DNA from: Haloarcula limicola
Lineage (GTDB): Archaea > Halobacteriota > Halobacteria > Halobacteriales > Haloarculaceae
Assembly: GCF_010119205.1 (NCBI RefSeq)
Contig: NZ_WRXM01000004.1
Coordinates: 62,001 to 126,000, forward strand
DNA: 64,000 nt
Reading direction: 5' to 3'
Part shown: positions 5,292 through 18,102 of the stretch, piece after piece
Layout: every line of letters begins with the position of its first letter
Position numbering within the stretch: the first letter of the stretch is position 1
Notes under the pieces: model-generated
What the model was told of the DNA's origin: nothing
What the model saw: only the letters and a program-made list of their open reading frames with translations
The model's database searches: none
Program-made: the position numbers and the translations under genes

Positions 5292-6155
5292 ATGAGTCTG
5301 CCGGAAGAACACACGGACAGCGGACACGGGGAGCACCACCTCCCGGCCACGGAGGACTGGCCCCAGGGGTTCGGCGAGGCGAGCTGGTGGCCCTTCGTCA
5401 CGGCCATCGGCGCGTCGGGAATCTACGTCGGCGCGGCGCTCTTCGTCCTCGCGCTGGGCGATTCGGGGCTCGTGAGCATGACCGTCGGTGCCGCCGCCAC
5501 CGTCTCCAGCGTCGGCCTGTTCCTGGTCGGCATCTACGGCTGGCTGTACCACGCCTTCGTCTCGAACTTCTGGGAGCGCGGGTCGGACCACCACTCCGCG
5601 CGCACGCTGAAGTTCGCCATGCTGTTGTTCCTCGGATCGGAGCTCGCGACGTTCGGTGCCGGCTTCGTCTACTACTTCATGATCCGAGGGGCCGACGTCT
5701 GGCTCGACGCTGCCATCCCCGAAGTGTGGGGATCGCTCGTCGTCGTCAACACCGTCATCCTGGTCGCCAGCTCGGTGACGCTGCACTATAGCCACGTCGC
5801 CCTGCTGAACGGTAAGCGCTCGCGCTTCCTCAAACTCCTCGGCGTGACGCTGCTGCTCGGAATCGTCTTCATCGCCGGACAGGTCTACGAGTACTACGAG
5901 TTCATCGTCCACGAGGGCTTCACTATCACGGGAGGAATCTACGGCTCCGCGTTCTACGGCCTGACCGGCCTGCACGGCCTCCACGTCACGATGGGTGCGG
6001 TCCTGCTCGGCATCGTCTTCGTCCGAGCGTACTACGGGCAGTACTCCGCCGAACGCCACACCTCCGTCTCGACGGCCTCGATGTACTGGCACTTCGTGGA
6101 CGTCGTCTGGATCTTCCTCGTCATCGTCCTCTACGTCGGCGCGAACCTGGTCTAA
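5292..6155 (+). CDS. coxC: Cytochrome c oxidase subunit III
   Basis: Subunit III of haem-copper oxidases stabilises the catalytic core. The 287-residue protein has seven hydrophobic helices and the family motifs SWWPF near the N-terminus, FxLxSExxxF-like sequence in the third helix region (LFLGSELATFGAGFVYYF), YEYYEF, and GLTGLHGLHVTMGAVLL followed by WHFVDVVWIFL at the C-terminus. Subunit I (49028-50830) lies 43 kb away and subunit II is not in the window, so the oxidase genes are split here. Start is the ATG that gives MSLPEEH. Confidence 0.93.
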   Translation: MSLPEEHTDSGHGEHHLPATEDWPQGFGEASWWPFVTAIGASGIYVGAALFVLALGDSGLVSMTVGAAATVSSVGLFLVGIYGWLYHAFVSNFWERGSDHHSARTLKFAMLLFLGSELATFGAGFVYYFMIRGADVWLDAAIPEVWGSLVVVNTVILVASSVTLHYSHVALLNGKRSRFLKLLGVTLLLGIVFIAGQVYEYYEFIVHEGFTITGGIYGSAFYGLTGLHGLHVTMGAVLLGIVFVRAYYGQYSAERHTSVSTASMYWHFVDVVWIFLVIVLYVGANLV

Positions 6156-6186
6156 GCCTTAAGCGACCCGCGGCTCTCTTCTCCCC

Positions 6187-6429
6187 ATGGAACGGCTCGA
6201 CGTCAGCGACGGCTTCGACGTCCACGACTATCGCCACGGCCTGAAGCTACTCAAACAGGACCGCGGGTCGATGACCCTGGAGAATCGGCACGGCTTCGCC
6301 TGCCCGGCCTGTGGCGAGCGCTTCGACCGCCTGTTCGTCAGCGAGAACCGCGAAAACACCTTCGGGAAACCCAGCAGCCCGATCTGTCTCGTCCGGACCG
6401 ACGAGCGGTTACTGTTGCTCACCCACTGA
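6187..6429 (+). CDS. Small conserved haloarchaeal protein with CPxCG motif
   Basis: An 80-residue soluble protein with a single CPACGERF zinc-knuckle-like pair (about residues 39-46), preceded by a hydrophilic region VSDGFDVHDYRHGLKLLKQD. It follows coxC by 31 bases on the same strand and might be cotranscribed. Homologues in haloarchaea carry a DUF name (possibly DUF7385, sometimes annotated as flagella cluster protein, from memory). Only one Cys pair is visible, so zinc would need dimerisation or other ligands. Function unknown. Confidence 0.65.
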   Translation: MERLDVSDGFDVHDYRHGLKLLKQDRGSMTLENRHGFACPACGERFDRLFVSENRENTFGKPSSPICLVRTDERLLLLTH

Positions 6430-6497
6430 CGACGGCTGCGACGCATCGAGGAGACCACGCCGGACGCTTTTGTTCGTGTGCTACGTACTGCCACTCG

Positions 6498-7538
6498 ATG
6501 CACGCCGCCAGACTCCACGAGTACACCGACGACATGGCGAACGGCCTCTCCATCGACGAAGTGGACGAGCCACAGGTGTCGAACAGCGACGACGTGGTGG
6601 TCGAAGTCGAGGGAGCCGGCTGGTGCCAGACTGACAACCACATCATCGAGGGGATGTGGACCGACTACGTCGAGCAGACGCTCCCGATGACGTTGGGCCA
6701 CGAGAACGCCGGGACGGTGGTCGCCGTCGGCGAGGAAGTGACACTGGTCTCGGAGGGAGATCAAGTGATCTGTCACCCGGTCCAGACCTGCGGGACCTGT
6801 CGGCCCTGTCGGCAGGGCGAGACGATGTACTGCGAGAACCAGTCGTTCAACGGCCTGACGACTGACGGCGGTTTCGCCGACGAACTGCTCACGAACGAGC
6901 GGTCGGTCATCCCGCTTCCCGACGGCGTGGACCCCACGACCATCGCGCCCCACGCCGACGCGGGCATCACCGCCTACCACGCCGTGAAGAAGGCCGAAGA
7001 CGGCCTCAATCCCGGTGACACCGCCGTCGTCATCGGGGTCGGCGGGCTCGGTCACATCGGGCTGCAGTGCCTCGACGCGATGAGCGCCGCCGACATCGTC
7101 GCGGTAGACCTCAAGCAGTCCGCGCGCGACCTCGCGTCGGACCTCGGCGCGCACTACACGCTCGACCCCGACAGCGAGGACGTGGCGAGCGAGGTCGAGG
7201 ACATCACCGACGGCGTCGGCGCGGCTCAGGTGCTTGACTTCGTCGGAGCCGACGAGACGACGCGACTGGCCCCCGACATCTGCGCGGCCGGAGGCGACCA
7301 CCACATCATCGGCTACGGCGGCCACATCCACGAACCCGCACAGTCGCTGGTCAACGGCGAGTTCGCCTACCAGGGGAACATCGTCGGCCGCTACACCGAA
7401 CTCCAGGAACTAGTCGCGCTGGTCGAACGCGACGCCGTCGAGTTGCACACGACGCAGTACGGCTTAGACGAGATCAACACCGTCGCCGAGAAACTGGAAC
7501 ACCGCGAGATCGACGGCCGGGCCGTCATCACGCCGTAG
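6498..7538 (+). CDS. Zinc-dependent alcohol dehydrogenase, medium-chain family
   Basis: A 346-residue NAD(P)-dependent dehydrogenase of the medium-chain family. Visible features are the catalytic-zinc segment WCQTDNHIIEG, the GHENAGTVVAVG motif, the structural zinc cluster CGTCRPCRQGETMYC (four cysteines) and the Rossmann nucleotide-binding GVGGLGHIGLQ. An Asp after the second beta strand (VDLK) suggests NAD preference. The substrate cannot be read from sequence; primary alcohols or an aldehyde are plausible. It stands alone, convergent with the small zinc protein at 7548. Confidence 0.9.
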   Translation: MHAARLHEYTDDMANGLSIDEVDEPQVSNSDDVVVEVEGAGWCQTDNHIIEGMWTDYVEQTLPMTLGHENAGTVVAVGEEVTLVSEGDQVICHPVQTCGTCRPCRQGETMYCENQSFNGLTTDGGFADELLTNERSVIPLPDGVDPTTIAPHADAGITAYHAVKKAEDGLNPGDTAVVIGVGGLGHIGLQCLDAMSAADIVAVDLKQSARDLASDLGAHYTLDPDSEDVASEVEDITDGVGAAQVLDFVGADETTRLAPDICAAGGDHHIIGYGGHIHEPAQSLVNGEFAYQGNIVGRYTELQELVALVERDAVELHTTQYGLDEINTVAEKLEHREIDGRAVITP

Positions 7539-7547
7539 GGGCGTCGC

Positions 7548-7853
7548 CTATCGGCGACGGTTCTCGGGGGGCGCGTCGTCCTCGCTCGAAAGCGCACAGT
7601 ACCGCCGCAGGAAGGTCGCGCGATCGACCGCGCCCGCACCGGCCTCGACGAGGCGGTCCTCTAACCCCCGTCGCGGACTGTGAGAGCGCGCGCGGTCACA
7701 GGGCGTGCAGAGGTACTCGAACTCCTTTTCGTCCCTGTCCCAGCGGTCGCCGAATTTGTCGTACTCTCTGGCGTCGTCGCGCGAGACTGCCTCGCCACAG
7801 GCGACACAGACGACCGTCGAGTCCTCGCGCTGCCACGCGTTCCGGTAAGACAC
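7548..7853 (-). CDS. Small zinc-binding haloarchaeal protein
   Basis: The 101-residue product carries two Cys pairs, CVACG near residue 16 and CTPC near residue 50, spaced as in a treble-clef or zinc-ribbon fold, with a basic, Arg-rich C-terminal half ending ENRRR. It looks like a conserved haloarchaeal family known only by a DUF number. A nucleic-acid-binding role would fit the fold but is not shown. It is convergent with the alcohol dehydrogenase. Confidence 0.6.
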   Translation of the reverse strand: MSYRNAWQREDSTVVCVACGEAVSRDDAREYDKFGDRWDRDEKEFEYLCTPCDRARSHSPRRGLEDRLVEAGAGAVDRATFLRRYCALSSEDDAPPENRRR

Positions 7854-8065
7854 GTCAGTGACCCCCCCGGAACGCGGAGCCGGTCGCCGAGTCGAATCGT
7901 CGCTGGTGTCTTCGCGTCATGGTGTTCGTTCGACGATTCGCTCCGGTAGCTACTCGCTCTACTGCGCCAGCCGTGAGGGCCATTTATATATCGCCGCTCA
8001 ACGAGACCAGCGGTCTCCACGGCCGCCAGCCAGCTATTTTTGCCCGGGCGACGTATCGGATTCCG

Positions 8066-8962
8066 ATGTCGGACGAACCCCCCACCTCGAAAGGCGACCG
8101 CCGGCTCCCCCGACTCGCCGCTCGAACCGCCCTCTTCGGGCTCCTCGGTCTGTCGCTCGGGAGCGTCCTCGCCGGCAGGCGACGGACCGGACGCCAGCGC
8201 GCGCAGTTGGTCGAGGAGTTACGGGAGACTGCCAGCGAGCGGTCAGAGAGACCCATCACGTCCGAAGACTACGCCGACCTTCCCGACCCGGTGCGCCGAT
8301 ACTTCGAGACGGTGCTCGAACCCGGTCAGTCTCGCGTCCGGACCGCTCGACTGAAACAGCGCGGCGAGTTTCGCCTCGGCGACAGCGAATCGTCGTGGCA
8401 CCCGCTGAGAGCGACCCAACGCTACACGGCTTCGCCGCCGGGCTTCGTCTGGGACGCGACGATACGCCTGGGGTCGGTTCTCCCGACGCAGGTGGTCGAT
8501 AGCTACGTCGACGGCACCCCCGCGCTCGCCGCCCGCCTGCTCTGGACGGTGCCGGTCGCCGACGCCGCCCCCACGCCGGAACTGGCCGCGGGCGAACTGA
8601 GCCGCTACCTCGCCGAAGCCGTCTGGTTTCCAACGGCACTCCTCCCCGCGAACGGCATCGAGTGGGAACCGATCGACGACGACGCCGCGCGAGCGACGCT
8701 CACCCACGACGGGACGACGGTCTCGCTCGTCTTCCGCTTCGACGAGGCGAATCTGGTCGACCGCGTCGTCGCCGAGGACCGCTTTCGCGCGGTCGGCGAC
8801 GGCTTCGAACGAGCGAAGTGGACCGGCCGCTTCGCGGACTACGAGCGGCGAGACGGGATGCTGGTCCCGACTCGCGGCGAAGTCGAGTGGAACCTCCCGA
8901 GCGGCGACCTCCCGTACTGGCGCGGGCGTATCACCGAGTTCGAGTTCGACCTCGGCGAGTGA
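8066..8962 (+). CDS. DUF6544/DUF6920-type conserved protein
   Basis: The protein is 298 residues from the chosen ATG (MSDEPPTSKGDRRLPRL). It has a hydrophobic N-terminal segment (about residues 22-40) that probably anchors it. The motif LPDPVRRYFETVLEPG, followed by WHPLRATQRYTASPPGFVWDA, ELSRYLAEAVWFPTALLP and a C-terminal VPTRGEVEWNLPSGDLPYWR, is the pattern I associate with this family, found in bacteria and haloarchaea without assigned function. The alternating beta pattern resembles lipocalin-like lipid-binding proteins, which is speculation. A longer frame upstream is AT-rich intergenic sequence and was not used. Confidence 0.75.
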   Translation: MSDEPPTSKGDRRLPRLAARTALFGLLGLSLGSVLAGRRRTGRQRAQLVEELRETASERSERPITSEDYADLPDPVRRYFETVLEPGQSRVRTARLKQRGEFRLGDSESSWHPLRATQRYTASPPGFVWDATIRLGSVLPTQVVDSYVDGTPALAARLLWTVPVADAAPTPELAAGELSRYLAEAVWFPTALLPANGIEWEPIDDDAARATLTHDGTTVSLVFRFDEANLVDRVVAEDRFRAVGDGFERAKWTGRFADYERRDGMLVPTRGEVEWNLPSGDLPYWRGRITEFEFDLGE

Positions 8963-9081
8963 ATTGGCGGACTGATACCGAACGTAGATGCGCTGCAGCC
9001 GCCGAATGAACGGTTCTGAACCGATTGAAGACCGGCGAACGGTCGGGGTGGTTTAGGTTCCGGGACCGCCATCGGAGTCGT

Positions 9082-9744
9082 ATGCCACGCCGCTCACTTC
9101 AGGTACTGCTCGTCGCCGCCGTCCTCCTCGCCGGATGCGCCGGCGGCGTCTCCGATGCACCCGGTTCACCGACCGCGGCGGACCGATCCGGAACGTCGGG
9201 GACGACGGCGACGACGACCGCGACCACCGGCGGGACGGTCGCGTTCTACATCAGCGACGAGAAGAACGCTATCGGTGACTTTCGATACCTCAACGTGACG
9301 GTCTCGCGGGTCGGCTTCGAGCGAACGGGGAACGGAAGCGGCGGCTGGGTCGAGTTCTCCGGCGGTAACACCACGCTCGATCTGACCACGCTTCAGGGGG
9401 AAAACGCCACGCTCGTCGACGCCTACAGACTCCCGAACGCGACCTACGGGAAGGTCTTCGTCCACGTCAGCGAGGTGAACGCGACGCTCGAAGACGGCGA
9501 GCGCGTCCGCGTGAAACTCCCGAGCGAGAAACTGCAACTGAACGACGAGTTCACCGTCCGCGACGGCACCGAAGTGGACTTCGTCTTCGACATCACGGTC
9601 GTGAAAGCCGGCAACAGCGGGAAGTACGTCCTCAAGCCGGTCATCAGCGAATCCGGAACCACGGTTCCGATCAAGCCGACGGGGGCCGTCGAAGCGGAAT
9701 CCGGAGCCACGTCGAACGCGACGGCGACTAACGGAACCGCGTGA
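9082..9744 (+). CDS. DUF4382-type lipoprotein
   Basis: This is a secreted lipoprotein of 220 residues. The signal sequence SLQVLLVAAVLLAGC ends in a lipobox with Cys 18, followed by a Thr/Ser/Gly-rich linker (about 25-50). A beta-sandwich domain follows, starting GTVAFYISDEKNAIGDFRYLNVTVSRVG and containing LPNATYGKVFVHVSEV; this is the DUF4382 pattern. Several Asn-X-Thr/Ser sequons suggest surface glycosylation. The ATG was chosen because it directly precedes the signal peptide. Confidence 0.8.
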   Translation: MPRRSLQVLLVAAVLLAGCAGGVSDAPGSPTAADRSGTSGTTATTTATTGGTVAFYISDEKNAIGDFRYLNVTVSRVGFERTGNGSGGWVEFSGGNTTLDLTTLQGENATLVDAYRLPNATYGKVFVHVSEVNATLEDGERVRVKLPSEKLQLNDEFTVRDGTEVDFVFDITVVKAGNSGKYVLKPVISESGTTVPIKPTGAVEAESGATSNATATNGTA

Positions 9745-9815
9745 AGACCGCGCCACGACGAACGTGAACTGGACTCACGCAAAGTATATGTGTAAACGGA
9801 AGTGATTGTGTCTCG

Positions 9816-9929
9816 ATGGAACACGTTCGGTACGACTGTACGAACTGCGGCACCGAGTTGAGCTATCAGCGCACGAAACACACGGGCTGTTCGAGCTGCG
9901 GTTTCCTGCCGGCCCACAGCGCCGACTGA
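9816..9929 (+). CDS. 37-residue zinc-finger micro-protein
   Basis: An ATG-initiated frame of 37 residues reads MEHVRYDCTNCG, then CSSCGFLPAHSAD before a TGA. The two CxxC pairs, 15 residues apart, would form a complete zinc ribbon, so the frame is very unlikely to be chance. An AT-rich stretch (AAAGTATATGTGTAAACGGA, 9781-9800) lies 16-35 bases before the ATG and may be its promoter. Such tiny zinc-finger proteins are abundant in haloarchaea. Function unknown. Confidence 0.7.
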   Translation: MEHVRYDCTNCGTELSYQRTKHTGCSSCGFLPAHSAD

Positions 9930-10106
9930 GTACGCCGTTGCGGTTGCGAAGGGTAGTAACGATTTTTCTCGCCGACAGAGAGTATCCGCCTACAGGTTAG
10001 CAACGGGCAGACGCACCCAGCGTCGAGTAAGGGTCGAGACGCCGAGCGGCGCGCCTCTCAACGTAGCGAGGTCACTCGTCCGTGCGATCGTTCGGACAGA
10101 AGCGAT

Positions 10107-10127
10107 CCGGTGGAGGGATTATGAACC
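10107..10127. repeat. Candidate left attachment site (tRNA-Thr 3' end copy)
   Basis: CCGGTGGAGGGATT is identical to 18031-18044 in the tRNA-Thr gene. The next bases, ATGAACC, differ from the tRNA's TGAACC by one inserted base. The site precedes the integrase. No gene is seen between 9930 and 10272; besides this site and the copy at 10206 that stretch holds only unremarkable sequence. Confidence 0.65.
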
Positions 10128-10205
10128 ACAGTCGTTCTGCTTCGCGTCACTCCCTGATTCAAATCCCACGACGACTTTCGCTGCTCACGAATGGTTCGCA
10201 GCAGA

Positions 10206-10219
10206 AAGCCGGTGGAGGG
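10206..10219. repeat. Second partial copy of the tRNA-Thr 3' end
   Basis: AAGCCGGTGGAGGG repeats the sequence at 18028-18041, including two bases outside the acceptor stem pairing, 99 bases after the first left copy. It could be the true left boundary, an earlier attachment site or an integrase arm-type site. Confidence 0.5.
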
Positions 10220-10272
10220 CTTACTGAATAAGGGTTACAAACAGTTACAGCGGTGCGGCGCGTATGTAATTC

Positions 10273-11505
10273 ATGCCCACGGAGAACTACGAGAAGCGGC
10301 TCAACGAGACGCTGGAGAACATCCAGCAGTCCGAGGTCATTTGTACCCGGAACAAGGAACTGCTCCAGGAGTACAAACGTGACAAAGTTCTTGACGGTCT
10401 GAGCGAGGCCACACTCCTGAAGAACCTCACCCGACTGAAGGTGATGGCCGAGCACCTGGAGGACCAGCAACTCGACGAGATGGACAAGGGCGACGTGAAG
10501 GACCTCGTCGCGTGGGTCCACTCCGAGTACGACAACGAGGAAACGATCGACACGTACAAGAACGTTATCCGGAGCTTCTGGAAGTGGCTGGATCCCGACG
10601 AGGACGGGGACGCACCCGAGACTGTCGCCTGGATTAAACTCAACAACTCCACGGGGAGCGACAAACTTCCGAAGGACCTGCTGTCGAAGGACGACATCGA
10701 AGCACAGGCGGAGGCCGCTAACAACCCACGCGACAGGGCGCTCATCTGGATGCTATACGAGACCGGCGCTCGCATCGGCGAACTCATCGACTTGACCGTA
10801 GGCGACATCGAGGACCGCAAACACGGGAAGAAGGTCGTCATCGAGGGTAAAACCGGCGCGCGTCGCCTCCCACTGGTGGAATCCGTCCCCCACATCAACA
10901 AGTGGCTGAACGACCACCCGAACCCCACGAAAGACGCGCCGCTGTGGTGTAAGATTCAGCAGGGCGGCCCGGACGACCAACTCGGCTACCGATACATCCG
11001 GGACAAGATCCTACGGAAGACGATGAAGGAGGCCGACATCGACAAGCCGTCGAATCCACACCACTACCGTCACTCCCGCGCGTCGTACTTGGCGAACCAC
11101 CTGAAAGAGGCGCAACTATGCGCGTGGTTTGGGTGGGTGCAGGGATCGGACGTCCCGGCCCGATACGTCCACCTCTCAGGACGTGACATCGACAACGCCT
11201 ACGACGAGATGCACGGGCTGTACGTTCCGGAGGAAGACAGCGACGAACCAGAAATCCGCGAGTGCGGGCGCTGTCAGGAACTCAACGAACCCGAAGCGGC
11301 TTTCTGTATGCGCTGTGGCTACGCGCTGAAAGGCGAGTCGGCGGCCGACTTCGAGGCGGAGGTCGAAGACGACGTGAAACAGGACTACGCCGAAACGGGC
11401 CCCGAGGACACGAGTACACAAGAGAAAATTGACACTATCGACAACCTCCTTGACGACCCGGATGTGAAGACCGCGCTCCTCGAACGGATGGGTACTGCCG
11501 AATAG
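10273..11505 (+). CDS. Tyrosine-recombinase integrase with C-terminal zinc ribbon
   Basis: This 410-residue integrase has an N-terminal core-binding (SAM-like) domain (about 25-125) and a catalytic domain with Arg167 in TGARIGEL, Lys193 in EGKTGARR, His263 and Arg266 in HHYRHSRASYL, Trp288 in FGW and nucleophile Tyr298 in ARYVHL. A four-Cys zinc ribbon (Cys331, 334, 345, 348) and an acidic tail follow. All catalytic residues are present, so the enzyme should be active. It reads inward from the left boundary, with the tRNA gene at the far end. Its codon use is closer to the host than that of the rest of the element. Confidence 0.9.
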   Translation: MPTENYEKRLNETLENIQQSEVICTRNKELLQEYKRDKVLDGLSEATLLKNLTRLKVMAEHLEDQQLDEMDKGDVKDLVAWVHSEYDNEETIDTYKNVIRSFWKWLDPDEDGDAPETVAWIKLNNSTGSDKLPKDLLSKDDIEAQAEAANNPRDRALIWMLYETGARIGELIDLTVGDIEDRKHGKKVVIEGKTGARRLPLVESVPHINKWLNDHPNPTKDAPLWCKIQQGGPDDQLGYRYIRDKILRKTMKEADIDKPSNPHHYRHSRASYLANHLKEAQLCAWFGWVQGSDVPARYVHLSGRDIDNAYDEMHGLYVPEEDSDEPEIRECGRCQELNEPEAAFCMRCGYALKGESAADFEAEVEDDVKQDYAETGPEDTSTQEKIDTIDNLLDDPDVKTALLERMGTAE

Positions 11506-11589
11506 ACGGAGGTCTAAGACGCTCTCCGAGGGGGTCGAACACCCATACGATAGTTCGTCGGTGGCGCGGTCGTGCGTCCCTTTCCCGCT

Positions 11590-11742
11590 GTGATTTCAGC
11601 ACATGCTACGAGCTCACCAACAATCCTCTACGGTAGAACGTACTTCGAAAGCAACATTGTGAAAGATGGAGAGATTGTATTCAGCAGTAGCGGCGAAGAT
11701 AGCGCTAATTCTGTCGGTCTAAGTGATAATGAGGCTGAATAG
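11590..11742 (+). CDS. Possible small gene or 3' remnant, 50 residues
   Basis: A GTG-initiated frame reads VISAHATSSPTILYGRTYFE, then SNIVKDGEIVFSSSGEDSAN, and ends at TAG just before the stop of the convergent CSGSK gene. The composition looks protein-like rather than random. There is no clear promoter or ribosome-binding site, and the frame is open upstream only to 11554. It may be the tail of a gene deleted during rearrangement of the element. Confidence 0.3.
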   Translation: MISAHATSSPTILYGRTYFESNIVKDGEIVFSSSGEDSANSVGLSDNEAE

Positions 11743-11748
11743 CTATCA

Positions 11749-12462
11749 TCAAGCGAACTCATCAAATCCAGACTGGGTCGTTTCGGTAGCCAAGCACCCC
11801 TCTCGAATTTTTTCTATATTAGAGATGGACTCTTCCCTCCCCACTTGTTGAGCGAAATTCTTCACGTAGACGCCTTTCAGCGCGACTACGATCGTGCTGT
11901 AACGTTTGGCATCATCTGTCCGTGCAGATATGGAAATCACTCTGTCGTTACCACCAGCTCTCTCTTCTTGATTGAATAAAATTACTAGCGTCGAATCGGG
12001 TATGCTTGCTAACGTTTGATCAAGGTCAATAGCATGATAATAGTCAGAACCGAGGGCGAAGAATATTATGTCGAATGGATCGTCAGATGTCTCGGTAAGC
12101 AGCTCACAGACTTCTTCGGCAATTTGCAATCTTTCCGCGCGCTGGTCAATTTCGCCATGATTCATACCACTGAACGTAATCTCGTACGGCGGAAGTTCTT
12201 CCCTCTCATCAATAAGTCCGAAACCCGCACTCACGAACTTTCGATCAACTTTGTGGCCTTTCGAACGAAGAACTTCAACGGCCTCGTTAATCCGCTGCTG
12301 CTGACGTCCTGAGTAAAGTTCGTTAGCTGGAATACCTGCTGTGTCAGGACGTTCCAGCAGCTGCTCTACCGGGCCTGAATCGACTTCTTCTTGCGTCAAT
12401 TCGTGGAGCGCTTCAGGATAGTTTTTTGATCCAGAGCACTGGTCAATGACGAGAATTTTCAT
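11749..12462 (-). CDS. CSGSK-motif protein (DUF6884/YaaA-like), partner of TGT-like genes
   Basis: The protein is 237 residues from ATG. The N-terminus ILVIDQCSGSKNY, then ANELYSGRQQQRI, KFVSAGFGLIDEREELPPYEITFSGM and a FFALGSDYYHAI strand follow the layout of DUF6884-like proteins, which resemble YaaA and the domain found beside TGT modules in archaeosine synthase (family memory, not searched). I chose the ATG one base after the stop of the 727-residue gene; its GGTGAG ribosome-binding site lies seven bases upstream. A GTG 12 bases earlier is possible. Tight coupling to the TGT-like gene suggests a joint task, perhaps handling the base or its precursor. Function is inferred. Confidence 0.7.
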   Translation of the reverse strand: MKILVIDQCSGSKNYPEALHELTQEEVDSGPVEQLLERPDTAGIPANELYSGRQQQRINEAVEVLRSKGHKVDRKFVSAGFGLIDEREELPPYEITFSGMNHGEIDQRAERLQIAEEVCELLTETSDDPFDIIFFALGSDYYHAIDLDQTLASIPDSTLVILFNQEERAGGNDRVISISARTDDAKRYSTIVVALKGVYVKNFAQQVGREESISNIEKIREGCLATETTQSGFDEFA

Positions 12463-12463
12463 T

Positions 12464-14647
12464 TTAGAACTCACCTAGCCCTTTCTGAGTGTGGCGTTTC
12501 GGTGTTTCTGTATCATCGTATCCAAGTTTGGTTAGAACAGCCTCTCTGATTTCCTCAGGGTCACTATATGTGAAAACGCTCTCTCGTGTAGTCGTCTCTC
12601 TCCCCAATATGGATTCTGCGTTAAGTAGATGGATTTCTTCGTATCGCTGTGAAGCTTTCTGAATTGCTGCCGCTTGAGTATCGGAATTTGAGTCTGACTC
12701 GGTAGCAGAGGTCTCCCACCATTCGTATACCCCTTGAGGAGTGATCAATCCAATCTCAACTACCGGAATATCAAATACCTCCCTCCATACCTCGTTATAT
12801 TCTGAAGTAAGATACTCCATGACTGTCTCATCTGCTTCGATTTCGTCTTCAGTGGGAATTCCGACGAGAATTCGAGGAAGTTGACGGTTAAAATCCTTAT
12901 AGAACTGATGCATATTGTGGAATCCTCGTCGTCGATTTCTGTTGTTCCCTCTGAAAACGACTACCTCAATACCGAGTTCTTCGCAGATTGTACAGTCACA
13001 GTCTTTCCAAGGTTCAGCACGCAGTGTCAATTCATAATCATCGAGATATTTTTCGTCTCCGACCCAGCGTGCATACTCCTCAACGACGTGCCACAGCTGG
13101 TCGAACGTACTCACTTCTCCTTGGCGTTTTTCAAGTGTATTTACTGCGTCCAGACACCACGGTGATTGACTTAGAATCTCTCGGGCAGTATCGATATCCG
13201 CGAGATACGCGTCGATATCGATGGGATCTTCGTCATCGTCATCCCGCATACGCTTGAGAATTTTCTTACGGAATACATCGCTGAAATGCGCTTGCGTTTC
13301 TCGACCGAACTCGAAATCGGTTCGGAAGGCTTCATTCAAATCTCGTATTCGAGACTGATTATACTGGTCGTCGTGTCGATGTTCACGGACGTATTCTTCG
13401 AGCGCATCCAGAGTCTCCTCTGCTTGTGCGGCCCAGGATCGAAGTGTATCCGAAATTGATTTATCTTGGTCGTAGGCTCGAAGCGACCGAAGCACCTCCT
13501 GTCCCCTTAGCGATTTTTCTATTGCCGTCTCGAATCCATCTCGGGCTGTCGCATACCGGACCCGTACCGCTGTGTACTTCTGATCCCCCGCCATGTGGTA
13601 ATTGCTCCCACCAGTCCACGCCGAACGGAGCATACTGGCGCTGTCGAAGGAACTCATGCCAGCGCGACCAACCGTATCGAAAGCTTTCGGCTTCGCGAAG
13701 CCGAACACGTGGCTGTCGACCCGTTCCTGGTGTTCTCTCTCGAATTCTCGTATGGTTTCTCCTACAACTGTTACGATATCTTTGATAGTCGATACGTGAC
13801 TGCTGGCTACACCGCCAATTCCGATATATCGGAAACCAGTATCTAATAGGAGATCAGCCGCTTCTGCATACGAGTCTGGGTCCCATCCCTGAAATGCCCC
13901 CATCAGACGGAACGAGTAATTCCCATTCTGATACTCCTCGAACATATGTTGGGCGTTATCTAACGTGAGATTATATCTGAACTCCCGGTCGTTCTCTCGA
14001 TGAACGGCCCGTGGATCGTTATTCAGGTGGTCAAGAATATCGTCGATAGATCCCTCGAAATCGCTCAGTGTGAACTTCTCTTTCGTGCTTTCGTTATAAA
14101 TAGAAGGTTCATATTCTCTAACGCAATCTGGCCATGTTTCGGGCCATTCCTCGATCATCAAGTCGACCTTCTCGCGTACTTTAGAGGGAATATCGCTTTC
14201 CGAGAATGCCTTCGAAAAACATTCTTCGTTTAGATAGAGACGTCCTCGCTCTTTTCCTTCCCCCATTATGAGGTGGTCGATAGTAACTCCCGTCGTAACT
14301 CCGATATCAGTGTAGAATTCCAGCATCTCGTCGTTGTCATATGGTGGGAATGGGAGCGATTTGTATCCCCAAGCACCGCAGTCACTGATCGTGGGCATCC
14401 AATCAGGGACTGACAGATTAGGGTCGTCGTAGACGCCTTCTGAGGTGAAACGGGTAAACTTGGATTTGCTGGATTCAACTTGTTCGCGGGAAATAAGGAC
14501 GCCGTCAACTGGTGTCGTTTCAGAATCAAAGATATCCCATATGAAATCTCGGTCCCGGTCGACTTTAACCAGATTAGAGAGTTCGTCGTTTACGAAGTCA
14601 TAGTCAGTATCGACGGCGTCGTCCCATTCGGGAACGTAGAATCGCAT
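12464..14647 (-). CDS. Large divergent TGT-superfamily protein (DpdA-like)
   Basis: The 727-residue protein keeps the landmarks of tRNA-guanine transglycosylases: Asp89 in ISDCGAWGY, Asp124 in GVTIDHL, FQGW (252-255), IGIGGV (275-280), GFAKP (316-320) and a candidate nucleophile Asp335 in SSFDSAS. The zinc site would be Cys550, Cys552, Cys555 plus His577 or His580 in RGFHNMHQFY. A helical insert (about 360-540) and a C-terminal extension (590-727) make it much longer than TGT (about 380). DpdA proteins are TGT relatives that insert 7-deazaguanine bases into DNA. No PUA domain is evident, so DNA is the likelier target. It is the second gene of a minus-strand operon, 48 bases after the compact TGT-like gene. 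Confidence 0.75.
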   Translation of the reverse strand: MRFYVPEWDDAVDTDYDFVNDELSNLVKVDRDRDFIWDIFDSETTPVDGVLISREQVESSKSKFTRFTSEGVYDDPNLSVPDWMPTISDCGAWGYKSLPFPPYDNDEMLEFYTDIGVTTGVTIDHLIMGEGKERGRLYLNEECFSKAFSESDIPSKVREKVDLMIEEWPETWPDCVREYEPSIYNESTKEKFTLSDFEGSIDDILDHLNNDPRAVHRENDREFRYNLTLDNAQHMFEEYQNGNYSFRLMGAFQGWDPDSYAEAADLLLDTGFRYIGIGGVASSHVSTIKDIVTVVGETIREFEREHQERVDSHVFGFAKPKAFDTVGRAGMSSFDSASMLRSAWTGGSNYHMAGDQKYTAVRVRYATARDGFETAIEKSLRGQEVLRSLRAYDQDKSISDTLRSWAAQAEETLDALEEYVREHRHDDQYNQSRIRDLNEAFRTDFEFGRETQAHFSDVFRKKILKRMRDDDDEDPIDIDAYLADIDTAREILSQSPWCLDAVNTLEKRQGEVSTFDQLWHVVEEYARWVGDEKYLDDYELTLRAEPWKDCDCTICEELGIEVVVFRGNNRNRRRGFHNMHQFYKDFNRQLPRILVGIPTEDEIEADETVMEYLTSEYNEVWREVFDIPVVEIGLITPQGVYEWWETSATESDSNSDTQAAAIQKASQRYEEIHLLNAESILGRETTTRESVFTYSDPEEIREAVLTKLGYDDTETPKRHTQKGLGEF

Positions 14648-14695
14648 GAATAGATTATGGTTGAGCTCGGGGGGAAATGAATCCTTCCAACTAAC

Positions 14696-15604
14696 TCAAG
14701 ACACCGATTTAGCCAACTGGTCTATCACCCACGCATTGTGGATTGCTCTTAGCTGCCGAACTCTACGCCTTGCTCCAGTGTACTTTTCGAGCTCGAATTC
14801 ATTCGTGAATACGTCGAATTTGTCACAGACAGGACAACTGCAGTAGAACTCCTGAGGACGAGAATCGCATTTTTCATGATATTCGATTCCACTGTTTTTC
14901 CATTCATACACTTCTCTGAGCATCGTGGCGTTGCGGATCGCTGAGGAGGAATCAAATGAATCGATTTTTTCGGAGATCCGTTGTAGAATACCTGGATTCG
15001 ATACCCCAAGTAAGTGAAGATTCCCTCCGTCTACAACCTCAGCTACTGCTTCTACGATCTCCGATACTTCATCGGTTTTCCGTAAGAAAGACCGACCGAC
15101 GAGATTGCCGAGACAGAATTTTTCGCAACCGATCTCCTTCAGTTGAGTCGCACAATCAAGATACTCCTCGACTGAAGACCCCTGTACAACATACCACACC
15201 TCAAAGTCGTACTGTCCCGCTAACTCATAGGTTCGCTCGGCATCCGATATCGTTTGAGCAGCATCGCCGACGGTATCTTTCTGGATTACGATATCGGGCG
15301 AGAAGGAACTCTGTAGCTCCAGAACCTTTTCTGGAGGGTCACCAGTTCCCTGAAATCCACCGCTATCGATGATAATTGGCCCTGGATAATCTAAGACCGC
15401 GTTGATCCCGTTCTCTTCAGCTGCGCGTCTGAAGCTCTTTTTCGCTCTTCCGCCGACTAAGTGTTCGAGTGATATCATATACCCGTTAACAGAGATAGGT
15501 GTATCAAGCAGTGGCGGGTCAATCGTCATCTCCTGAGGGCTCTGACTAGGATCATGGTACAAGGGATCTGGATTGGGGGCCCATTCGATGAAGTATTCTA
15601 CCAT
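14696..15604 (-). CDS. Compact TGT-like protein with complete catalytic motifs
   Basis: This 302-residue protein is a minimal TGT fold. It has DSGGFQ (80-85) as in base-exchanging TGTs, VVQG (139-142), LGNLVG (165-170), LGVSNP (199-204), candidate nucleophile Asp218 in DSFDSSSAIRNA and a zinc site CSCPVC (Cys255, 257, 260) with His289 in LRAIHNAW. It lacks the PUA and other C-terminal domains of archaeal tRNA TGT (ArcTGT). It is the first gene of the minus-strand operon. Having two TGT paralogues side by side suggests a heteromeric enzyme, by analogy with queuine TGT, where one subunit is non-catalytic; here both appear to keep the Asp. A DNA substrate is inference. Confidence 0.82.
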   Translation of the reverse strand: MVEYFIEWAPNPDPLYHDPSQSPQEMTIDPPLLDTPISVNGYMISLEHLVGGRAKKSFRRAAEENGINAVLDYPGPIIIDSGGFQGTGDPPEKVLELQSSFSPDIVIQKDTVGDAAQTISDAERTYELAGQYDFEVWYVVQGSSVEEYLDCATQLKEIGCEKFCLGNLVGRSFLRKTDEVSEIVEAVAEVVDGGNLHLLGVSNPGILQRISEKIDSFDSSSAIRNATMLREVYEWKNSGIEYHEKCDSRPQEFYCSCPVCDKFDVFTNEFELEKYTGARRRVRQLRAIHNAWVIDQLAKSVS

Positions 15605-15609
15605 TGCAA

Positions 15610-15625
15610 CTCAGATTAATCTGAG
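15610..15625. promoter_or_regulatory. Perfect 16-bp palindrome, candidate operator
   Basis: CTCAGATTAATCTGAG is a perfect inverted repeat ending six bases before the start codon of the compact TGT-like gene. The AT-rich run AATAAATACTTT (15631-15642) on the far side could be its TATA element, which places the palindrome over the transcription start. The divergent winged-helix gene starts at 15683, so its product is the obvious candidate binder, repressing the TGT operon and perhaps itself. Confidence 0.6.
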
Positions 15626-15682
15626 CTACTAATAAATACTTTACTGATGTTTCATGCCAGCGGTGGTTCGACATTTGTAATA

Positions 15683-15976
15683 ATGCCTGCACCAGCAGAG
15701 GACGGTATTCTCCGTGTCCTGCAAGGAAAGGGGGCAATCCTCGTCTTGCATCTTCTCGCGGAAGAGCCAGAAGTTGGATTCAACCAATTAGAGGAATCTT
15801 GCAGGAGTGAAATCAGCCATTCTACTCTATCAAACCGCCTAAATGAATTGGAAGAATTGAATTTAATCGAGCGTAGAAGTTCCGACGAAAGGCCCCCCCG
15901 GACGTATTATACCCTCACTGAGAAAGGAGAGCGCGCAGTCGAGTTATTGAACCAGATACAGAATCTGGATCAGTAG
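15683..15976 (+). CDS. Winged-helix transcriptional regulator (HxlR/MarR-like)
   Basis: The 97-residue protein is almost entirely one winged helix. Its helices are GILRVLQGKGAILVLHLLAE and GFNQLEESC, the recognition helix is SHSTLSNRLNELEELNLI, and the wing is RRSSDERPPRTYYTLTEKG. A final helix probably dimerises. An in-frame ATG at 15647 would add 12 residues; the later ATG gives the more usual N-terminus. The gene is divergent from the TGT-like operon across a gap holding the 16-bp palindrome, and its 3' end overlaps the nuclease gene's stop by seven bases on the opposite strand. Confidence 0.8.
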   Translation: MPAPAEDGILRVLQGKGAILVLHLLAEEPEVGFNQLEESCRSEISHSTLSNRLNELEELNLIERRSSDERPPRTYYTLTEKGERAVELLNQIQNLDQ

Positions 15977-17424
15977 TCGAGTAGGCTTTCTATATCGTTG
16001 AGCATCCGATCCACATCATCAATCATATAAACTCCGTCGAACCCTGCGATCTGTTTGAAGAAGTCGAGAGACTTATTCTCATACGAGGAAGGCCCTCGCC
16101 AGTACCCGTCAAGCACTATTATATGATGCCGGTCTTTTTCAGAGACATTGTCTCCCTTTAGCGCATAGCGAGTGAGGAAAGACCTTCCAGCGACACGATG
16201 TGCCTCGTAACCTGCCTGCTTCGGTCCAGATCCTCCCTTCCCGCCTGAGAGAGATTTCACCTCAATATAGATATCAGTCTCTCCGTTCAATTTGATATCC
16301 CACTCGTATTTTTTACTAAGAATACCCAGCTGGTGGACGAATCCATCTGAGGTTATGCCATTCGAACTCCATTCAATTGTAATGTCGTCATCCAATTTCT
16401 GATCAAGAATCGCGTACACGGTCCCTTCTGTGGGATTGAAATAGTCCCATCGTTTGGCCGGATTTCCGTGTTCAAACATCTCGTAGTAGAATTCTTCTAA
16501 GTCACCATTCTCAACCAGTTGCCGCATTTTTGACCCACGAGATAGATTCGTTAGGGAGTAGTACGCCTCACGGAGGCCATCACGAACTAAAGAAGGTGTG
16601 AGTCCATGGTCAAATCGCTTGAAGACGTCGTGTAATTCGTATTCATCTCGTAAGTCATCAAGCTCCGCTAAGAACCAATCTTCGTCGAAGTTGTTCAGCC
16701 AGTCGTCCCGTTGCAGCACCAGCTTCGCCAATGAAGTGTAGTTGTCCGCGAAGCCGGTGATTGCTGGCAAAGTAATCGGCTTATCACCTGCATACCCAGC
16801 ACGCGATTGTATTTGATCTAGTTCCTTTTCTAACGCATTCTGCCCCGCTTTCCTCGCTTGGTCGCTCGGATTAACCTCTTTGTATTCAATCGGCTCCTCT
16901 TGAGTAACATTGATGACCGTATCCCAGAACAGAGAGTAGGTCTCAAGATAATCCTCCGCTCGGCTGACGTCAGAGTCTTTGGTTGCATACGTACCGAACA
17001 CCATGACCGTTGTGGCATCGGGGAAGTGAGATTTCAAAAATAGTAGTTCGCCGAGATTCTTCTGAAAGTTTTTATTGAAATGACCTTGCTTCACCTGCGT
17101 CGCCCAGGCTACGATCCACGGATCACTTTCATTAGGCGCATATGCATCATATTGGATTCCAGTCTCGCGATCTGGAATCATCCCGTCGTTCATCGTTTCC
17201 GGATCAACGTCAAATTCGGATGCCAGAATAACGGGCAGAATCTCTTTTTCAAGATGGCTACCTGTGAGGTTTGACTCCTCCATTACACGGGTCATATCTT
17301 TCCCGGAGAACCCCCCGTCGTGACGGAGTTCGCTATCGGTCTTCTCTGAATCGGCCGTAAAATCATCCAGAGAGGTACTAACAGGAGAATCGTTTCCACT
17401 ATCTTCGTGGTTTTGCCGACCCAT
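15970..17424 (-). CDS. Candidate restriction endonuclease with two PD-(D/E)XK-like motifs
   Basis: I found no named family for this 484-residue protein. Near the C-terminus, Asp376 in YEWDIKL and Glu388-Val-Lys390 in IYIEVKSLSGG match the PD-(D/E)XK nuclease core, followed by KQAGYEAHRVAGRS and a VLDGYW strand. A second possible core lies at the N-terminus: Glu60 in SHLEKEI, Asp93 in IQYDAYAP and Gln110-Val-Lys112 in ATQVKQG. The middle (180-350) is helical. The ATG at 17424 was taken over an upstream in-frame TTG. Context beside TGT/DpdA-like genes suggests it cuts DNA lacking, or carrying, the modified base. Fold and role are inferred. Confidence 0.65.
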   Translation of the reverse strand: MGRQNHEDSGNDSPVSTSLDDFTADSEKTDSELRHDGGFSGKDMTRVMEESNLTGSHLEKEILPVILASEFDVDPETMNDGMIPDRETGIQYDAYAPNESDPWIVAWATQVKQGHFNKNFQKNLGELLFLKSHFPDATTVMVFGTYATKDSDVSRAEDYLETYSLFWDTVINVTQEEPIEYKEVNPSDQARKAGQNALEKELDQIQSRAGYAGDKPITLPAITGFADNYTSLAKLVLQRDDWLNNFDEDWFLAELDDLRDEYELHDVFKRFDHGLTPSLVRDGLREAYYSLTNLSRGSKMRQLVENGDLEEFYYEMFEHGNPAKRWDYFNPTEGTVYAILDQKLDDDITIEWSSNGITSDGFVHQLGILSKKYEWDIKLNGETDIYIEVKSLSGGKGGSGPKQAGYEAHRVAGRSFLTRYALKGDNVSEKDRHHIIVLDGYWRGPSSYENKSLDFFKQIAGFDGVYMIDDVDRMLNDIESLLDY

Positions 17425-17490: not shown

Positions 17491-18003
17491 ATGAAACGCT
17501 CAGATAAAGTTGAGCCAATTAGCAGTAACGGCGATCGACGGAACCTTCGGACGGTAACGCATCCGAAGCCGCGAGATGCCGACCGTGCGATGGACCCGTA
17601 TCCTGACAACACCGACGTTGACCCCGTTATAGATCCCGATGGTGATCTCGACGTTGACCTGTGGGGTGGTGCTGGGGTCTGGCGAGAGTTCTTCGACCTC
17701 GTTCGGTTCTTCTGGCTTGACCAGCGCGAGGCAGGGCTGTCGTGTGACGAGTTAGAACGCTCTGTCACCGCCAGTATCGAGGCCGCAGAAGGAGAGTTTC
17801 GCCACGGGAAGCGGGGAAGGATGCAGCACAATGACGTGGCAGCAACGTTTTCGGTCGAGACTGTCGACAACGTGAACGTAGAATCTGCGAAGCAGCGCTT
17901 CGAACGGGGAGTAGCTTTGGCTCCCATAGAATTGAAAGCGCTCGTCGAATCTGGCGAGTACGAAATCCGACCGACTGAGTCATCAGACGAGAATCGAGTG
18001 TAG
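17491..18003 (+). CDS. Unknown protein at the tRNA end of the element
   Basis: This is a 170-residue soluble protein with a disordered, Asp/Pro-rich N-terminal third (DADRAMDPYPDNTDVDPVID) and a helical remainder (GVWREFFDLVRFFWLDQREAGLS, CDELERSVTASIEAAEGEFR, VESAKQRFERGVAL). It shows no catalytic motif I recognise and no Cys pairs that would bind zinc. It is divergent from the candidate nuclease, which could make it a control, immunity or accessory protein. It ends 25 bases before the tRNA-Thr 3' end. Function unknown. Confidence 0.6.
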   Translation: MKRSDKVEPISSNGDRRNLRTVTHPKPRDADRAMDPYPDNTDVDPVIDPDGDLDVDLWGGAGVWREFFDLVRFFWLDQREAGLSCDELERSVTASIEAAEGEFRHGKRGRMQHNDVAATFSVETVDNVNVESAKQRFERGVALAPIELKALVESGEYEIRPTESSDENRV

Positions 18004-18027: not shown

Positions 18028-18050
18028 AAGCCGGTGGAGGGATTTGAACC
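18028..18050. repeat. Right attachment region in the tRNA-Thr 3' half
   Basis: AAGCCGGTGGAGGGATTTGA followed by ACC covers the discriminator, acceptor and T-arm sequence of the tRNA gene. Its first 14 bases recur at 10206-10219, and bases 18031-18044 recur at 10107-10120. Confidence 0.65.
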
Positions 18051-18102
18051 CTCGGCCTAATCCTTACGAAGGATTCGCTCTGCCAGTCTGAGCTACACCG
18101 GC
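18029..18102 (-). tRNA. tRNA-Thr (anticodon CGT)
   Basis: The minus strand folds into a complete 74-base cloverleaf. The 7-bp acceptor stem is GCCGGTG/CACCGGC with discriminator T, the D arm is GCTCAGACTGGCAGAGC, the anticodon stem AATCC/GGATT encloses loop TTCGTAA with anticodon CGT, and the T arm is GAGGG-TTCAAAT-CCCTC. CCA is not encoded. It decodes ACG. The gene remains intact although the element is integrated at its 3' end. Confidence 0.96.

What the first reader, a model, noticed from the sequence alone, without database searches (positions are those of the whole stretch)
11749..17424. Compact candidate 7-deazaguanine DNA-modification plus restriction system in a tRNA-integrated element
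Seen: a three-gene operon (compact TGT-like, large TGT/DpdA-like, CSGSK-motif protein) with a divergent winged-helix gene and a tail-to-tail gene for a protein with two PD-(D/E)XK-like motifs. Known: DpdA is a TGT relative that puts preQ0-derived bases into DNA in bacteria and viruses, and haloarchaea already make preQ0 for tRNA archaeosine. Inferred: the element borrows host preQ0, marks DNA with two TGT-like subunits and discriminates marked from unmarked DNA with the nuclease. The set lacks the helicase and many accessory genes of known bacterial Dpd clusters.
Basis: partly seen in the sequence, partly recalled or inferred. Interest (0 to 1): 0.92.

Follow-up and report, generated by a model that had tools for sequence, protein, structure and literature searches.

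The report
Mobile archaeal DNA-marking system with two transglycosylases
A small mobile element in a salt-loving archaeon carries a stripped-down version of a known bacterial DNA-marking (7-deazaguanine) defence system; it uses two related base-swapping enzymes instead of the usual one plus a helper, and may pair them with a single DNA-cutting enzyme.

Summary
An ~7.8 kb integrative element sits at tRNA-Thr(CGT). It carries an operon encoding a compact TGT (14696-15604), true DpdA (12464-14647) and a DpdC-like DUF6884 protein (11749-12474), plus a divergent HxlR-type regulator with a perfect 16-bp palindrome in the shared promoter. A tail-to-tail gene (15970-17424) encodes an orphan protein with one plausible and one degenerate PD-(D/E)XK motif. 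DpdA is certain; DpdC is well supported; the compact TGT keeps its catalytic and zinc residues but lies on its own deep branch.

New comparative result: a second compact TGT is DpdA's near-obligate partner in haloarchaea (33 of 35 DpdA+ genomes, 1 of 258 DpdA- genomes). Across 80 DpdA loci from other genomes, a second TGT (27) and DpdB (15) never co-occur. So this is a minimal member of a widespread two-TGT, DpdB-less Dpd class.

Most likely it writes dPreQ0/dADG into DNA from host preQ0. That the orphan protein restricts unmarked DNA is only inferred: it has no homologue in any collection searched, and structure prediction failed. The host also has a canonical dpd cluster. A new variant of a known kind.

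The parts
10206..10219 (+). attL candidate: copy of the tRNA-Thr 3' end (AAGCCGGTGGAGGG); a poorer copy at 10104-10120
   Evidence: direct repeat with 18028-18041
10273..11505 (+). tyrosine recombinase/integrase, 410 aa, C-terminal zinc ribbon
   Evidence: PF00589 2.5e-16, XerA-type NCBIfam model 1.6e-24
11749..12474 (-). DpdC-like protein (DUF6884, motifs CSGSK/LYSGRQ/SAGFGL/PPYEITF)
   Evidence: PADLOC DpdC 1.3e-10; PF21818 25 bits, below cut-off 30; homologues fused to DpdA in 20 of 36 haloarchaeal loci
12464..14647 (-). DpdA, DNA-guanine transglycosylase (Asp of DCGA at residue 89, Asp of FDSAS at 335, CxCxxC...H zinc site 550-577) with an insertion and a C-terminal extension
   Evidence: NF041059 298 bits vs cut-off 200; PDB 7ui4 2.6e-46; invariant columns in A1
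14696..15604 (-). compact second TGT (302 aa, no PUA domain), catalytic Asp80 (DSGGFQ) and Asp218 (FDSSS), zinc CSCPVC...H kept
   Evidence: PF01702 62 bits; 1iq8 5.8e-10; profile of Dpd-associated second TGTs 74 bits vs TgtA 43; deep unresolved branch
15610..15625 (.). perfect palindrome CTCAGATTAATCTGAG between the divergent TGT and wHTH genes, probable operator
   Evidence: 8 gapless palindromes at least this long in 64 kb, so ~0.5% chance in this 42-bp gap
15647..15976 (+). HxlR/PadR-type winged-helix regulator
   Evidence: PF01638 6e-13; counterpart of c11 regulators in canonical haloarchaeal clusters
15970..17424 (-). orphan 484-aa protein, putative restriction nuclease: C-terminal WDIK(375)...IYIEVK(388-390), N-terminal YD(92)...QVK(110)
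   Evidence: motifs by eye; NOV_C/DUF3883 only at E 0.17 on this motif; no homologues
17491..18003 (+). 170-aa ORF of unknown function at the tRNA end of the element
   Evidence: no family match
18029..18102 (-). tRNA-Thr(CGT), integration target
   Evidence: ARAGORN; empty site in five congeners

Best explanation
The element is a compact, DpdB-less, two-TGT Dpd-type DNA modification system in an integrative element. Host preQ0, made for tRNA archaeosine, is exchanged for guanine in DNA by DpdA acting together with the compact TGT (most simply as a heterodimer, TGTs being dimeric). The DpdC-like protein then hydrolyses the nitrile to give dADG. The HxlR-type repressor sits on the palindrome between its own gene and the operon and autoregulates expression. 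The orphan tail-to-tail protein most probably cleaves incoming DNA that lacks the mark, taking the place of the helicase/PLD restriction genes of larger clusters. Shown: gene identities, two-TGT association, element boundaries, palindrome, host QueC/TgtA. Inferred: base identity, heterodimer, repression, and restriction by the orphan protein.
For: DpdA. DpdC-like; DpdA-DpdC fusions in 20 of 36 haloarchaeal loci and in 57 of 80 others, with opposite domain orders. Second TGT. Companion rule: DpdA in 35 of 293 haloarchaeal genomes; another compact TGT (c3) in 33 of these and in 1 of the 258 without DpdA, Fisher 4e-40. Replacement of DpdB: 80 loci, 27 with second TGT, 15 with DpdB, none with both, Fisher 0.0009. 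No DpdB in the own genome. Host preQ0: QueC, TgtA. Mobility. Operator; TTGGT-N4-ACCAA palindromes at the same place in five canonical clusters.
Against: The orphan protein has no homologue in 146 family, 293 order or 393 phylum genomes, in plasmids, viral contigs or GTDB, so no co-occurrence supports its role; its structure models are useless (pLDDT 35 and 46). The compact TGT is not the c3 type of other haloarchaea (27% identity, 21 bits to its profile) and does not group firmly with any Dpd-associated type. DpdB/second-TGT exclusion is not corrected for phylogeny, and three genomes of one genus hold a weak DpdB-like match together with c3. No chemistry was measured.
Confidence: 0.62

Rival explanations
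1. Modification only: the operon marks DNA to protect the element (or host) against other restriction systems, such as the canonical dpd cluster in the same genome; the orphan protein is unrelated cargo (for example a modification-dependent or independent nuclease, or not a nuclease).
For: The orphan gene is not part of the operon, is convergent to the regulator gene, and is found nowhere else; viruses use DpdA alone for protection (PMC6884629; HRTV-29 in PMC8651126); the same genome has a canonical cluster.
Against: The protein lies inside the element with the same low GC as the operon and has a plausible PD-(D/E)XK core; Dpd loci normally pair writers with restriction genes.
Confidence: 0.27
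2. The compact TGT is a tRNA (or other RNA) enzyme carried along with DpdA, a stray TgtA paralogue without PUA domain.
For: Best BLAST hits are haloarchaeal TgtA, 27%; 1iq8 is the best PDB match.
Against: Far below the TgtA equivalog cut-off (54 vs 350 bits); the profile of Dpd-associated second TGTs fits it better than that of TgtA does (74 vs 43 bits); no tRNA-binding PUA domain; second compact TGTs accompany DpdA across phyla.
Confidence: 0.12
3. A decaying remnant of a larger dpd cluster that has lost the c1/c2, helicase and PLD genes and no longer works as a defence.
For: Lacks c1, c2, c7, c12 and the preQ0 genes found in many haloarchaeal clusters.
Against: All reading frames are intact with closely spaced or overlapping ends, catalytic residues are kept, and the second TGT is of another type, not a c3 remnant.
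Confidence: 0.1

Closest known systems
Bacterial Dpd system (dpdA-K, Salmonella Montevideo type)
   Same: DpdA and a DpdC/DUF6884 protein; preQ0-dependent; on a mobile island
   Different: no DpdB, no DpdD-K (helicases, PLD, DpdG/H); second TGT instead; single orphan putative nuclease
Haloarchaeal canonical dpd cluster (35 of 293 genomes here; a host DpdA was noted in PMC6884629)
   Same: DpdA about 50% identical, DpdC 48%, and in several loci an HxlR-type regulator beside the second TGT gene
   Different: second TGT of another type (27%), no BrxD-like ATPase (c1), c2, helicase or PLD; gene order TGT-dpdA-dpdC instead of dpdA-dpdC ... TGT-c2-c1
Two-TGT Dpd loci of Paenibacillus, Chloroflexota, Deinococcus and cyanobacteria
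   Same: DpdA with a ~300-aa second TGT and no DpdB; similar N-terminal [YF][YF][VI]xW motif in the Bacillota/Chloroflexota type
   Different: those carry ATPase genes (DpdH-like in several) and often helicases; DpdC fused to the DpdA N-terminus in most
BREX-Related Capture systems with TGT (PMC12839542)
   Same: archaeal and bacterial loci using a TGT homologue as predicted DNA modifier without DpdB
   Different: built on PglZ, BrxC, HerA; no DpdC; none of these here
Phage/halovirus DpdA (HRTV-29, phage 7-11)
   Same: minimal modification borrowing host preQ0
   Different: described as DpdA alone; here DpdC, a second TGT and a putative nuclease are added

Membership tests
DpdA (DNA-guanine transglycosylase), 12464-14647 | scores above the curated DpdA equivalog cut-off and aligns with a solved DpdA over the TGT core | tested here: met
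   NF041059 298 vs 200 bits; 7ui4 2.6e-46
DpdA (DNA-guanine transglycosylase), 12464-14647 | two catalytic Asp and CxCxxC...H zinc site | tested here: met
   invariant across 11 DpdA sequences including this one; positions
Dpd system | DpdC, converts dPreQ0 to dADG | tested here: met
   homology only: PADLOC DpdC 1.3e-10; Pfam DUF6884 25 bits, under its cut-off of 30; activity not testable
Dpd system | DpdB (DGQHR, ParB-like ATPase) | tested here: not met
   no match in the own genome or the element; not seen either in 65 of the other 80 DpdA loci, some of them short contigs
Dpd system | restriction genes dpdD-K | tested here: not met
   none among the element's genes
Dpd system | preQ0 supply | tested here: met
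   QueC 239.7 bits and TgtA 290.7 bits in the same genome
Dpd system | dPreQ0/dADG in DNA | not testable with these tools
   needs nucleoside mass spectrometry
Two-TGT Dpd class (defined here) | compact TGT next to dpdA and no DpdB | tested here: met
Two-TGT Dpd class (defined here) | compact TGT groups in a tree with other Dpd-associated second TGTs | tested here: inconclusive
   profile score best for the Bacillota/Chloroflexota type but unresolved deep branch
TgtA / arcTGT (tRNA archaeosine) | equivalog score and C-terminal PUA region | tested here: not met
   54 vs 350 bits; protein ends after the catalytic core at 302 aa
PD-(D/E)XK nuclease, 15970-17424 | D...(D/E)xK on a beta-hairpin core | tested here: inconclusive
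   motif WDIK-IYIEVK present; NOV_C E 0.17; models pLDDT 35/46

The most novel reading that the evidence does not exclude
A whole 7-deazaguanine restriction-modification system in five genes: a hetero-oligomeric DNA transglycosylase (DpdA plus a second catalytically complete TGT that replaces the DpdB ATPase), DpdC, a repressor, and one nuclease of a new family that senses absence of the mark. The second-TGT-for-DpdB swap would be a general principle across archaea and bacteria.
Probability: 0.38. Interest if true: 0.8.

Novelty: new variant of a known kind. Interest (0 to 1): 0.62.

Why it matters
The part played by DpdB in Dpd systems is unclear, and many clusters lack it. A second TGT that accompanies DpdA in 33 of 35 haloarchaeal genomes, and is never seen with DpdB in 80 other loci, makes a concrete, testable proposal: DNA insertion needs a partner subunit, either DpdB or a second TGT. 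The window's element would be the smallest such set seen here, useful as a portable tool for writing 7-deazaguanines into DNA, and possibly a single-nuclease restriction system in archaea, where Dpd defence has barely been described.

Tried and rejected
Structure of the orphan protein: full length (pLDDT 35) and C-terminal 155 aa (pLDDT 46); too poor for a fold search, so none was run. Homologues of the orphan protein: none in plasmids, viral contigs, GTDB or three genome samplings; one hit at 0.002 (G395) looked like an unrelated Fe-S hydrogenase-type protein, in a genome without DpdA. Relatives of the compact TGT or DpdA in viral contigs: none. Considered that the compact TGT is the c3 protein of canonical clusters: rejected (27% identity, 21 bits). 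Considered that it is a stray TgtA: disfavoured. Considered chance resemblance: rejected for DpdA and the TGT, whose family matches are far above thresholds. The key papers on Dpd (Thiaville 2016, Yuan 2018, Gedara 2023) are not in the held library, so prior mention of second TGTs could not be ruled out.

Full report
WHAT IS THERE. The window belongs to a 3.9 Mb haloarchaeal genome. A tyrosine integrase (10273-11505) and tRNA-Thr(CGT) (18029-18102) bracket a low-GC cargo. The tRNA 3' end is repeated at 10206. The cargo genes from the operon to the nuclease have GC3 of 0.46-0.51 against 0.83-0.89 in flanking genes; the integrase has 0.80. In five congeners the same left-flank gene stands 0.2-0.4 kb from the same tRNA and the same liv transport genes, so the site is empty there.

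GENE IDENTITIES. 12464-14647 is DpdA: the NCBIfam DpdA equivalog gives 298 bits against a cut-off of 200, and the solved DNA-guanine transglycosylase 7ui4 matches at 2.6e-46. All catalytic and zinc residues are invariant with ten other DpdA proteins. 11749-12474 is DpdC-like: PADLOC DpdC at 1.3e-10, while Pfam DUF6884 is below its cut-off. Homologues of it are fused to DpdA at the C-terminus in most of the 20 fused haloarchaeal loci (36 loci in all) and mostly at the N-terminus in bacteria. 14696-15604 is a TGT-superfamily enzyme (PF01702, 62 bits) without a PUA domain and with both catalytic aspartates and the zinc site. 15647-15976 is an HxlR-type regulator; the 42-bp gap to the TGT gene holds the perfect palindrome CTCAGATTAATCTGAG. 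15970-17424 has no family match. Its C-terminal WDIK...IYIEVK motif resembles a PD-(D/E)XK core, and the only echo is NOV_C at E 0.17.

THE SECOND TGT IS A RULE, NOT AN ODDITY. Of 293 haloarchaeal genomes, 35 have DpdA. Their loci share a layout of dpdA-dpdC (separate or fused), in several a small winged-helix gene, a second TGT of ~344 aa (c3), a ~300-aa protein (c2) and a BrxD-like ATPase (c1). Many also carry QueD, QueE, QueC and FolE, a helicase and a PLD protein. c3 occurs in 33 of the 35 DpdA+ genomes and in one of 258 without DpdA (Fisher 4e-40). In 80 DpdA loci from GTDB genomes, mostly bacterial, a compact second TGT is present in 27, DpdB in 15 and both in none (Fisher 0.0009, uncorrected for phylogeny; the loci were chosen by similarity to a cyanobacterial DpdA). 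Annotated plasmids show the same: DpdB in Enterobacter and Caulobacter, a second TGT and no DpdB in Nostoc, Picosynechococcus, Paenibacillus and Deinococcus. An exception to watch is a weak DpdB-like protein together with c3 in three genomes of one genus.

WHERE THE WINDOW'S SECOND TGT BELONGS. It is not c3 (27% identity). The profile of the Bacillota/Chloroflexota type of second TGT scores it best (74 bits; cyanobacterial type 61, TgtA 43, DpdA 35, c3 21), and the N-termini share an [YF][YF][VI]xW motif. A tree leaves it on a long unresolved branch. So it is a new TGT lineage in the same genomic role.

MECHANISM. Known from the literature: DpdA inserts preQ0 and DpdC hydrolyses it (summarised in PMC12839542); TGTs are dimers (PMC6884629). 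From own knowledge of the Yuan 2018 abstract: DpdA and DpdB suffice for dPreQ0 in Salmonella, and DpdB is dispensable in some clusters. The host makes preQ0 (QueC) for archaeosine (TgtA). Hence: host preQ0, then DpdA plus the second TGT giving dPreQ0 in DNA, then the DpdC-like protein giving dADG; the regulator represses from the palindrome; the orphan protein restricts unmarked DNA. The first steps rest on homology and co-occurrence; the last is inference from position and a motif. The rival in which the operon only protects (for example against the canonical dpd cluster of the same genome, C2:33.6-40 kb) remains open.

NOVELTY. Dpd is known, and a haloarchaeal host DpdA was mentioned in 2019 (PMC6884629). 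A 2025 survey that required dpdA and dpdB reported dpd islands in eight bacterial phyla (PMC11888242); by construction it would miss the two-TGT class. No held paper that I found describes the second-TGT-for-DpdB swap, but the main Dpd papers are not in the library. I rate it a new variant of a known kind.

Noticed in passing
L036 (G000:C2:28000-47000), locus 5628-12046: The same genome carries a second, canonical haloarchaeal dpd cluster (DpdA 49%, DpdC 48%, c3 TGT, c2, BrxD-like ATPase), with a QueD-like ORF next to it that is only 100 aa, against ~151 aa elsewhere.
   Followed up: partly
L044, L057, L058 and others: About half of haloarchaeal loci have a ~967-aa DpdA-DpdC fusion; bacteria mostly have the opposite order (DpdC-DpdA, ~700 aa).
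   Followed up: yes
L036:8751, L056:11095, L062:6935, L063:11063, L067:7085: TTGGT-N4-ACCAA palindromes at the regulator/c3 gene border of canonical clusters, probable operators of the HxlR-type protein (five of nine loci).
   Followed up: partly
L137:2782-7477 (Salinibaculum sp. KK48 plasmid): A 275-aa TGT-like protein near a queuosine-precursor transporter, an AccI-family restriction enzyme and an N6 methylase; may be another deazaguanine-linked locus.
   Followed up: no
L127:11576-12049 (Haloarcula sinaiiensis pHsi139): EVE-domain protein (a family that often reads modified bases) inside a canonical haloarchaeal dpd cluster.
   Followed up: no
window 7919-10100: Host-like-GC stretch between the conserved left-flank gene and the attL copy that is also absent at this site in five congeners; perhaps an older insertion.
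   Followed up: partly
L039 (G180:C2), L038: One genome holds two canonical dpd clusters on one replicon, with DpdA or c3 apparently split by stop codons or frameshifts.
   Followed up: no
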